Part shown: positions 33,574 to 36,324 of the stretch, in pieces
How the letters are laid out: every line of letters starts with the position of its first letter
Position numbering within the stretch: position 1 is the first letter of the stretch
From: Acidimicrobiia bacterium
GTDB taxonomy: Bacteria > Actinomycetota > Acidimicrobiia > IMCC26256 > JAMXLJ01
Direction of reading: 5' to 3'
Length of the DNA: 42,928 nt
NCBI GenBank assembly: GCA_024281095.1
Contig: JAMXLJ010000049.1
Location: forward strand, 1 to 42,928
Notes under the pieces: model-generated
The model's input: only the letters and a program-made list of their open reading frames with translations
The model's database searches: none
What the model was told of the DNA's origin: nothing
Translations under genes and position numbers: made by a program

Positions 33574-34254
33574 TCAGCCCGGAGCGGCGACGGCGGGTGC
33601 GTCCTCCGGAGGCGTGGACGCGAGGGCCACGGTCCCGGTCGCGGCTGCGAAGGCGAGGCGCTTCGCGTGCTCCGCCGGCACGAGGAGCGTGACGCCGACC
33701 TTCTCGGCGCGGATTCCTGCGTCGGCGGGTTGCGTGTCGGTGTCGACCGCGATGACGGGCACGCGTTCGGCGACGGTGAGCGTGGGGTCGGCGTCGCCCG
33801 GCACCGACCCGGCGGGCAACGTGACGAACACGTCGACGACGTCGCCTGCTCGAGGGTGCAAGCCGTCCGCGACGACGACGCGCATCGCGCGCCGCCCGGG
33901 CGGCACCACACCGTCGCGGCCGTCGCGCACTCGCCCGGTGACGTGCCGTCTGGTGACGACCGAGCCCGAGAGCACGGGCACCGCGACGACCCGGCCGACC
34001 GCGGCGTCGCGGTTCGTGATCGCGTCACGCGGCGCGCCGTCGCCGCGAATCTTGACTACGCGCAAGTCGGACGGGCCGACCACGACGCCGAGTGTGAGGT
34101 CGCGGGCGGCGACCACGAACGCGCGCACGCGTCCGTAGCGGCGGTCTTGACGCTGCAGTGACGCCAACGTGCCGCCGACCGAGACCGTCGTGACGATCGC
34201 GACGACGGCGGCAGCCGACCACAACAGGACGGCACGAGGGGAACGGCGGAACAT
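33574..34254 (-). CDS. SAF-domain / CpaB-like protein
   Basis: This is a 226-residue protein with one N-terminal membrane helix (VLLWSAAAVVAIVTTVSVGG), then a SAF domain (about 45-110; FVVAARDLTLGVVVGPSDLR, GRVVAVPVLSGSVVTRRHV) and a beta-rich C-terminal half (GDVVDVFVTLPAG, VGVTLLVPAEHAKRLAFAA). This is the layout of CpaB/RcpC, the periplasmic component of Flp/Tad pili. No other tad/cpa gene is in the window, so this is either an orphan or a repurposed relative. AGGAG lies eight bases before ATG 34254. Confidence 0.82.
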   Translation of the reverse strand: MFRRSPRAVLLWSAAAVVAIVTTVSVGGTLASLQRQDRRYGRVRAFVVAARDLTLGVVVGPSDLRVVKIRGDGAPRDAITNRDAAVGRVVAVPVLSGSVVTRRHVTGRVRDGRDGVVPPGRRAMRVVVADGLHPRAGDVVDVFVTLPAGSVPGDADPTLTVAERVPVIAVDTDTQPADAGIRAEKVGVTLLVPAEHAKRLAFAAATGTVALASTPPEDAPAVAAPG

Positions 34255-34337
34255 CGGTGGCACTCCTGGGCGCGACGAAGCCAAGAGGGGAAGCCGGTGG
34301 GAAGTGGCGACGCGCGCCCGAGGGCGGCGAAGGCAGG

Positions 34338-35159
34338 TTAGTCCGGTCGTTCCACAGCGGGAAGTGGCCCGCGCGCATCCGCGCAATGGCATCCACGCTC
34401 GTGCGGCACCCGCGGCACCAGCGCGAAGAGCAGGCTGCGGATGCGTTCGAGGTTGCGATCGAAGAACGAGAACACGGCTTCCTGCGTGACCGGCTCCACC
34501 GCGGGGTCGTCTTCGACGCCGGTGTCGTAGTCGGTGATGAGCGCGATCCCCGTGTAACACAGGCCCAGCTCGCGAGCGAGGAACGCCTCGGGGTACTGGG
34601 TCATGTTCACGACTTCCCAGCCTTGAGCGCGGTACCAGCGCGATTCGGCCCGGGTGGAGAACCGCGGCCCTTGGACGACGACGACGGTGCCCGTCGGGTG
34701 CACGGGCACACCGATGTCGCTCGCCGCCTTCACGGCGAGGCCGGAGAGCTCCGCGCAGTATGGATCGGCTGCGGTGGGGTGGTACGGCAGTGGACCCTCA
34801 TAGAACGTGTCGGCGCGGCCCCACGTCCGATCGACGAACTGGTCGACGACGACGAAGTCGCCGGGGTGCACATGTGGCTGCAACGACCCCGCGGCGAAGG
34901 GACCCACGACGCGGTTCACGCCGAGCGAGCTCATCGCCCACAAGTTGGCCCGGTAGTTCACCCGGTGGGGCGGGAACTCGTGGGCCGGACCGTGGCGGGG
35001 GAGGAACGCGACGCGGCGGCCGTCGACCACCCCCAGATGCACGGGCGCGCTCGGCGCACCGTAGGGCGTGTCGACGACGACCTCTTCGACGTCGTCGAGG
35101 AAGGCGTAGAACCCCGAACCACCGAAGATCCCGATGTCGGCCCGGGGCCGGGGAGTCAC
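34338..35159 (-). CDS. mtnP: S-methyl-5'-thioadenosine phosphorylase
   Basis: This 273-residue purine phosphorylase splits methylthioadenosine into adenine and 5-methylthioribose-1-phosphate in methionine salvage. The phosphate loop IFGGSGFY, the RHGPAHEFPPHRVNYRAN block, GPRFSTRAESRWY and NMTQYPEAFLAREL are present. TDYD near residue 215 carries the two Asp residues that favour 6-aminopurines, so MTA rather than inosine or guanosine is the expected substrate. GTG 35159 follows the fmdB stop by seven bases, so both belong to the transcript driven from the CIRCE-bearing promoter. No mtnA or other salvage genes are adjacent. Confidence 0.92.
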   Translation of the reverse strand: MTPRPRADIGIFGGSGFYAFLDDVEEVVVDTPYGAPSAPVHLGVVDGRRVAFLPRHGPAHEFPPHRVNYRANLWAMSSLGVNRVVGPFAAGSLQPHVHPGDFVVVDQFVDRTWGRADTFYEGPLPYHPTAADPYCAELSGLAVKAASDIGVPVHPTGTVVVVQGPRFSTRAESRWYRAQGWEVVNMTQYPEAFLARELGLCYTGIALITDYDTGVEDDPAVEPVTQEAVFSFFDRNLERIRSLLFALVPRVPHERGCHCADARGPLPAVERPD

Positions 35160-35166
35160 GGCCGCC

Positions 35167-35478
35167 TCAGGCCGACTTCGCCTCGGCTGACTTCGTGGCC
35201 GGCTTGGGCTCGGACTTCTTCTCGGACTTCGACGACGAGTCGCCGCCGGAGTCCTTTGCGCCGTCCTTGGTCGTCTCCTTCGCCGGCTTGGAGCCCCCAC
35301 CGCCACGGTTGTCGGTGCGGTAGAAGCCCGAGCCCTTGAAGACGATCCCGACCGAGCCCAGCACCTTGTTCAGCTTGCCGCCGCACACGTCGTGCTTCTT
35401 GAGCGGCTCGTCGCTGAACGACTGGTACACCTCGATGTGCTCGCCACACTTGGTGCACCGGTATTCGTACGTCGGCAT
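35167..35478 (-). CDS. FmdB-family zinc-ribbon protein
   Basis: This is a 103-residue protein with an FmdB-type zinc ribbon: MPTYEYRCTKCGE (Cys8, Cys11) and KKHDVCGGKL (His29, Cys32). It is a CCHC site where the textbook family has four Cys. The conserved FKGSGFYRTDNRGGG follows, then a Lys/Ser/Glu-rich disordered tail. The molecular function of the family is unknown; some members were named regulators. GAGGAAA seven bases upstream fixes the start. A CIRCE operator lies 37 bases upstream, predicting control by the heat-shock repressor HrcA. Confidence 0.92.
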   Translation of the reverse strand: MPTYEYRCTKCGEHIEVYQSFSDEPLKKHDVCGGKLNKVLGSVGIVFKGSGFYRTDNRGGGGSKPAKETTKDGAKDSGGDSSSKSEKKSEPKPATKSAEAKSA

Positions 35479-35514
35479 GGCAAGTTTCCTCGGGCTCGGC
35501 GGTGTGTCGGGCGG

Positions 35515-35541
35515 TTAGCACTCGCCCCACACGACTGCTAA
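35515..35541 (-). promoter_or_regulatory. CIRCE operator (HrcA-binding site)
   Basis: On the plus strand TTAGCACTC, nine bases, then GACTGCTAA. The CIRCE consensus is TTAGCACTC-N9-GAGTGCTAA, so 17 of 18 arm positions and the exact spacing match. TACCAT just upstream on the minus strand is a possible -10. HrcA bound here would block transcription of fmdB-mtnP. Confidence 0.88.
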
Positions 35542-35700
35542 ATGGTATCCGCTGGTAGAACGGGCCACCACGCCTCGTGATTCCCCACCGGGCCCGGATT
35601 GACGCCACGGAAGTTCGGGTGAACCAATGAAGACCCGCGGACGGAGCTGCGCCGTGGGCGGATGCCCCGGGAGGGCGCAGCGGAGGGAGCCATCAGGAGC

Positions 35701-36324
35701 GTGGTCGTCGTCGTACTGGCGTTGATACCCGTCGCGTATCTCCTCGGGACCTTCCCGAGCGCCGTCCTCGTCGCGCGCGCCGGCGGCCACGACGTGACGC
35801 GCGAGGGCTCCGGGAATCCGGGCGCATCGAACGTCGCCCGCCTCATGGGCTGGCGCGCCGGAGTGCTCGTGATGCTGGCCGACTTCGCCAAGGGCGCGCT
35901 CGCCGCGGGCGTGGGGTTGGCGCTCGACGGTCATGCGGGCGCCTACCTGCTCGGCATCGCGGCCGTCGTGGGCCACATGCTCCCGGTCACCCGGCGGTTC
36001 AAGGGCGGCAAGGGTGTGGCGACGGGTGGCGGCGTGCTCGTCGTGCTCTTCCCGTTGATCGTCGTCGCGCTCGGTGTGGTCTGGTTCGTCGTGGCGCGTG
36101 TGCTCAAGCGGGCCTCGATCGCGTCCCTGCTCATCGCAGTGGCCTTCCCGATCGCGGTCTGGCTCACCGGCAGCAGCGCGCTCGACATCGCGGTCACGTC
36201 CGCGCTCGCCGTCGTCGTGATCCTGCGGCACGCGTCGAACGTCCGTCGCCTTGTCCGGGGCGAAGAGCACACGCTCGGCGGTGCCACCGCGCCCGATGGC
36301 GACCCACCGCGCGACCACGGGTAG
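35701..36324 (+). CDS. plsY: Glycerol-3-phosphate acyltransferase PlsY
   Basis: This is a 207-residue membrane acyltransferase that uses acyl-phosphate to acylate glycerol-3-phosphate, the first step of phospholipid synthesis. The family's three cytosolic motifs are visible: REGSGNPGASNVAR, HMLPVTRRFKGGKGVATGGG and the C-terminal ILRHASNVRRLVRG. Five helices are expected. GTG 35701 is preferred because it leaves the usual short helix before YLLGTFPSAV, with GGAGGGAG 11 bases upstream; ATG 35662 adds 13 residues. It diverges from fmdB. No plsX is nearby. Confidence 0.93.
   Translation: MVVVVLALIPVAYLLGTFPSAVLVARAGGHDVTREGSGNPGASNVARLMGWRAGVLVMLADFAKGALAAGVGLALDGHAGAYLLGIAAVVGHMLPVTRRFKGGKGVATGGGVLVVLFPLIVVALGVVWFVVARVLKRASIASLLIAVAFPIAVWLTGSSALDIAVTSALAVVVILRHASNVRRLVRGEEHTLGGATAPDGDPPRDHG

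What the first reader, a model, noticed from the sequence alone, without database searches (positions are those of the whole stretch)
35159..35541. HrcA/CIRCE operator in front of fmdB-mtnP, not a chaperone operon
The site matches CIRCE in 17 of 18 arm positions with the exact nine-base spacer, 37 bases before fmdB, and fmdB is seven bases from mtnP. CIRCE is known almost only from groESL, groEL and dnaK operons. A zinc-ribbon protein of unknown function and MTA phosphorylase under the heat-shock repressor would give FmdB a role in protein quality control. It would also tie methionine salvage or polyamine by-product removal to heat stress.
Basis: partly seen in the sequence, partly recalled or inferred. 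Interest (0 to 1): 0.72.

Follow-up and report, generated by a model that had tools for sequence, protein, structure and literature searches.

The report
Heat-shock operator before chaperone gene ruc/fmdB
The site is a real binding sequence for the heat-shock repressor HrcA in front of a small zinc-ribbon gene; the same repressor-gene pairing is already proven in Mycobacterium tuberculosis, where the protein (Ruc) is a redox-activated chaperone, so the main point is known and only the attached methionine-salvage gene mtnP is a modest new twist.

Summary
Window 35515-35541 matches CIRCE at 17 of 18 arm positions with the nine-base spacer, 36 bases before fmdB; mtnP follows fmdB by a few bases. 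The genome has hrcA, and its other CIRCE sites lie before groES, groEL (double) and hrcA-dnaJ. The site is conserved in 18 of 27 fmdB genes of the same order, and a strict CIRCE-fmdB pattern recurs in over 100 GTDB contigs, mostly actinobacterial. A -10-like TAnnnT is fused to the operator on the fmdB strand (74 of 134 loci; 2 on the other strand). But the idea is not new: M. tuberculosis HrcA directly represses the homologue Rv0991c (Ruc), which is heat-induced and a redox-activated chaperone (PMC7448276). The four CIRCE operons here match the published M. tuberculosis HrcA regulon, with mtnP in the place of rv0990c. I found no earlier record of the mtnP link: among 31 genomes of this order, 10 of 11 close mtnP orthologues sit directly behind CIRCE-fmdB (the eleventh is at a contig end). 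Its heat induction is inferred, not shown. Cysteine-free FmdB proteins behind CIRCE in Solirubrobacterales-type contigs also look unreported.

The parts
35515..35541 (.). CIRCE operator (HrcA binding site), 17 of 18 arm positions, spacer 9
   Evidence: conserved in relatives
35542..35547 (-). -10-like box TACCAT, flush with the operator, on the fmdB strand
   Evidence: TAnnnT fused to CIRCE in 17 of 18 CIRCE-bearing fmdB genes of the order; strand-asymmetric, 74 against 2 of 134
35559..35584 (-). tentative SigH/ECF-like promoter GGAATC...CGTT, kept in the same-genus genome
   Evidence: absent from most other relatives, so weak
35167..35478 (-). fmdB / ruc homologue, zinc-ribbon protein of 103 aa with hydrophilic tail; zinc ligand positions C8, C11, H29, C32
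34338..35162 (-). mtnP, S-methyl-5'-thioadenosine phosphorylase, apparent second gene of the operon
35662..36324 (+). divergent plsY-like gene (glycerol-3-phosphate acyltransferase), neighbour, not the likely target

Best explanation
A genuine CIRCE operator on which HrcA represses the fmdB(ruc)-mtnP transcript at normal temperature, by covering a start site expected inside the operator, next to a -10 box fused to it. On heat or folding stress HrcA loses its hold (in M. tuberculosis full induction needs the Pup-proteasome; a pup gene is present here) and the operon comes on together with groES, groEL and hrcA-dnaJ. FmdB is the local Ruc: a zinc-ribbon protein with a disordered tail that becomes an aggregation-preventing chaperone when its cysteines are oxidised and zinc is lost. 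MtnP is co-transcribed and so co-induced, clearing methylthioadenosine. Shown here: site, promoter-like signature, regulon, conservation, gene order. Shown elsewhere, in M. tuberculosis: HrcA repression, heat induction, chaperone activity. Inferred: all activity in this organism, and mtnP induction.
For: Near-perfect site, none in shuffles. hrcA present; the other CIRCE sites of the genome lie before groES, groEL and hrcA-dnaJ, matching the M. tuberculosis HrcA regulon groEL2, groES-groEL1, rv0991c-rv0990c, hrcA-dnaJ2. -10-like box fused to the operator. Experimental precedent for Ruc. mtnP behind CIRCE-fmdB in 10 of 11 genomes with a close mtnP. pup present.
Against: 9 of 27 fmdB genes of the order lack the site although most of those genomes have hrcA. 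No consensus -35 was found. H29 replaces one of the four Ruc cysteines, so the redox switch may differ. No expression data for this organism; mtnP could have its own promoter inside fmdB.
Confidence: 0.93

Rival explanations
1. HrcA controls fmdB only; mtnP is a neighbour with its own promoter or is cut off from the heat response.
For: In the wider set only 14 of 116 CIRCE-fmdB loci have mtnP next; no functional link between MTA and folding stress is established.
Against: Gap of a few bases, several pairs overlapping by 4 bases; no terminator-like site found in 34200-35700; 10 of 11 close mtnP orthologues in the order are behind CIRCE-fmdB.
Confidence: 0.2
2. The operator serves the divergent plsY-like gene.
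For: The site lies between the two genes and is palindromic; plsY is often the divergent neighbour in the order.
Against: The fused -10-like box is on the fmdB strand in 74 of 134 loci and on the other in 2; the site is closer to fmdB than to plsY in the window (36 against about 120 bases); most wider CIRCE-fmdB loci show no plsY homologue.
Confidence: 0.03
3. Chance or decayed palindrome without function.
For: One arm mismatch (GACTGCTAA).
Against: Conserved position and sequence across the order; the same C/G variant (GCAGTC) recurs at fmdB sites of relatives, so it is a usual form there and not decay; no match in shuffles.
Confidence: 0.01

Closest known systems
Mycobacterium tuberculosis ruc (Rv0991c)-Rv0990c operon under HrcA
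   Same: FmdB-type zinc-ribbon gene directly repressed by HrcA, in a regulon with groES, groEL and hrcA-dnaJ (PMC7448276, PMC8557902); zinc ribbon and VFKG block in register
   Different: Second gene is mtnP, not rv0990c; one zinc cysteine is His29; SigH co-control not established here
HrcA/CIRCE control of groESL and dnaK operons
   Same: Operator sequence, spacer and overlap with the promoter
   Different: Target is fmdB-mtnP
Hsp33 (redox-regulated chaperone)
   Same: Works alike by analogy reported for Ruc: zinc-bound and inactive when reduced, active when oxidised (PMC7448276)
   Different: Unrelated sequence; FmdB is not a member of the Hsp33 family

Membership tests
CIRCE operator / HrcA regulon | TTAGCACTC-N9-GAGTGCTAA | tested here: met
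   17 of 18, spacer 9
CIRCE operator / HrcA regulon | hrcA in the same genome | tested here: met
   PF01628 E 1.5e-48, itself behind a CIRCE
CIRCE operator / HrcA regulon | site lies in the promoter of the target | tested here: met
   fused -10-like box on the fmdB strand; start site not mapped
CIRCE operator / HrcA regulon | HrcA binding and heat induction | not testable with these tools
   shown for the M. tuberculosis homologue only
Ruc/FmdB zinc-ribbon chaperones | N-terminal zinc ribbon of the FmdB family | tested here: met
   TIGR02605 62.7 bits, cut-off 31.3; PF09723
Ruc/FmdB zinc-ribbon chaperones | four zinc cysteines | tested here: not met
   C8, C11, C32 kept, position 29 is His, a C3H ribbon common in the order; membership of the FmdB family stands, the redox switch is inferred
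Ruc/FmdB zinc-ribbon chaperones | hydrophilic, disordered C-terminal tail | tested here: inconclusive
   residues from about 58 on are Gly/Ser/Lys/Glu-rich by sequence; disorder not computed
Ruc/FmdB zinc-ribbon chaperones | chaperone activity on oxidation | not testable with these tools
   shown for Ruc
MTA phosphorylase (MtnP) | equivalog profile above cut-off | tested here: met
   NF005876 349.6 bits, cut-off 306; TIGR01694 just below its cut-off, 273.5 against 274.85

The most novel reading that the evidence does not exclude
In part of one actinobacterial class MTA salvage has become a stable part of the HrcA heat-shock regulon, so that methylthioadenosine removal is switched on with the chaperones. 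In another branch (Solirubrobacterales-type) the HrcA-controlled FmdB has lost all zinc-ribbon cysteines and should be a redox-blind, always active chaperone controlled by transcription alone.
Probability: 0.4. Interest if true: 0.45.

Novelty: new member of a known kind. Interest (0 to 1): 0.3.

Why it matters
It shows that HrcA control of the Ruc/FmdB chaperone, demonstrated in M. tuberculosis, is a widespread actinobacterial arrangement, seen also in Chloroflexi-labelled contigs. This supports a protein-quality-control role for the many proteins annotated only as 'FmdB family zinc ribbon'. The mtnP link makes a simple prediction: MTA phosphorylase rises on heat shock in this order. The natural cysteine-free FmdB proteins are a ready test of whether redox switching is essential to the family.

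Tried and rejected
Chance palindrome: rejected. plsY as the target: disfavoured by strand asymmetry. SigH-like promoter: GGAATC...CGTT is kept in the same-genus pair but absent from most relatives, left as tentative. Consensus -35: no clear TTGACA at any spacing, and the sigma-70 scan found nothing. Literature: no held paper names both MTA phosphorylase and HrcA or FmdB with CIRCE and HrcA; the precedent is indexed under Rv0991c/Ruc, not FmdB. Link between loss of hrcA and loss of the fmdB site: not clean; most relatives lacking the site still have hrcA, and G021 has the site but no hrcA found. One protein alignment failed for a bad coordinate. PDB by sequence: no relative of FmdB. No structure prediction was run: the protein is short, probably half disordered, and nothing hung on it.

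Full report
OBSERVATION. A CIRCE search allowing up to three mismatches gives one match in the window, 35515-35541, TTAGCACTC-GCCCCACAC-GACTGCTAA, one mismatch in 18 arm positions; 100 shuffles gave none. On the minus strand fmdB starts at 35478, 36 bases beyond the site, and ends at 35167; mtnP follows within a few bases. FmdB matches Pfam Zn_ribbon_8 and NCBIfam TIGR02605 'FmdB family zinc ribbon protein'; MtnP matches the MTA phosphorylase equivalog PRK07823 above its cut-off.

THE GENOME. The assembly (4.39 Mb, 98% complete) has one hrcA, profile E 1.5e-48. Allowing three mismatches, it has five CIRCE places and none for the reversed control: before groES (Cpn10), two in tandem before groEL (Cpn60, cut by the contig end), before hrcA-dnaJ, and before fmdB. 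A pup gene is present, as is mtnA on another contig.

PRECEDENT. This is the published HrcA regulon of Mycobacterium tuberculosis: groEL2, groES-groEL1, rv0991c-rv0990c and hrcA-dnaJ2 (PMC8557902). Rv0991c, named Ruc, is directly repressed by HrcA, induced at 45 degrees and also driven by SigH, and its full heat induction needs the Pup-proteasome system, thought to remove HrcA (PMC7448276). Purified Ruc binds one zinc through cysteines, is disordered, and prevents luciferase aggregation only when oxidised; Cys-to-Ser double mutants lack zinc and are active even when reduced; the disordered tail is needed. The paper never uses the name FmdB or CIRCE, which explains why a reader would think FmdB unstudied. 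Translating the mutagenesis primers printed in the paper gives PTYSYE-x-TQ-x-ANRFDVV, DDALTT-x-ER-x-SGRLRKLF and AVGVVFKG (x marks the mutated cysteines), in register with the window protein.

CONSERVATION. Of 31 genomes (the window's own and 30 relatives, all of one order), 27 gave an fmdB. Eighteen of these have a CIRCE of 14 to 18 arm matches 14 to 81 bases before the start codon; the other nine score 11 or less. Shuffled 203-base stretches reach 14 in only 4 of 5,400 trials. hrcA was found in 29 of the 31 genomes, including most that lack the fmdB site, so the site is common but not obligatory. Across the class, a strict pattern (exact core, limited spacing, and FmdB start) is in 29 of 295 genomes from 25 genera, with no match for the reversed control; this is a lower bound because core and spacing were fixed. 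Some labels look like binning errors (see Noticed in passing), so the breadth beyond Actinomycetota rests mainly on the Chloroflexi set.

PROMOTER. A -10-like TAnnnT ends at the first T of CIRCE, or one base before it, in 17 of 18 CIRCE-bearing fmdB genes of the order, against a background of about 0.1% per position; among 113 other loci 45 have it at the first T and 10 one base further on. Over 134 loci it is present on the fmdB strand in 74 and on the opposite strand in 2. The first T belongs to CIRCE itself, so only the TA is independent evidence, but the asymmetry is clear. Hence the transcription start should lie within the operator, where HrcA would block it, and the operator points to fmdB and not to the divergent plsY-like gene. 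In the window the box is TACCAT. A SigH-like GGAATC...CGTT further upstream is kept in the same-genus genome but is tentative.

THE mtnP PART. In the order, 10 of 18 CIRCE-bearing fmdB genes have mtnP directly behind them, against 0 of 9 without CIRCE; the species are not independent, so this is not a clean statistical test. A search with MtnP found 11 close orthologues (55% identity or more) among these genomes: those 10, and one in G023, whose contig ends about 110 bases upstream (locus L185 is 2,405 bases long), so its neighbour is unknown. A more distant one (43%) is in G009. Several fmdB-mtnP pairs overlap by four bases, as in translationally coupled genes. In the wider set 14 of 116 CIRCE-fmdB loci have mtnP next, while the commonest next-gene cluster is of the SAF/RcpC type that in the window lies just after mtnP. 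The simplest reading is that mtnP came in between fmdB and that gene in one part of the class and has stayed. That it is co-induced by heat is inferred from gene order. No paper in the held library names both MTA phosphorylase and HrcA.

THE PROTEIN. The window's FmdB has C8, C11, H29 and C32 where Ruc has four cysteines; the His form is typical of this order, at least 20 of 27. Three thiols remain, so a redox switch is possible but not shown. Six Solirubrobacterales-type loci have CIRCE before an FmdB with no cysteine in the first 48 residues; by the Ruc mutant data these would be active without oxidation.

VERDICT. A real operator, correctly read, with a mechanism already demonstrated in M. 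tuberculosis. New here are the extent of conservation, the promoter-operator fusion, the mtnP extension and the cysteine variants; these are modest additions and none is a new kind of system.

Noticed in passing
L035, L053, L055, L096, L106, L148: CIRCE stands before an FmdB with no cysteine in the zinc-ribbon part (MPIYEYRRPDGT...); L148 has a second such gene right behind the first. A redox-blind relative of Ruc under HrcA.
   Followed up: partly
window 35392-35394 (FmdB residue 29): His replaces the third zinc cysteine of Ruc; the C3H form is common throughout the order.
   Followed up: partly
L089, L095, L134: FmdB proteins in contigs labelled Acidobacteriota, Rubrivirga and Bifidobacterium breve closely resemble those of other, actinobacterial contigs (L089 with L113; L095 with L045/L059/L137): probably mis-binned or mislabelled contigs.
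   Followed up: no
L063, L087, L117, L135: In Chloroflexi-labelled contigs the gene after CIRCE-fmdB resembles D-aminoacyl-tRNA deacylase (MRALLQRV...), an unexplained further passenger.
   Followed up: no
window 33574-34560, minus strand: SAF/RcpC (Flp pilus CpaB-like) gene next to mtnP; in loci without mtnP the same kind of gene often follows fmdB.
   Followed up: partly
G021: A 93% complete genome with CIRCE sites, including one before fmdB, but no hrcA found: assembly gap or real loss.
   Followed up: no
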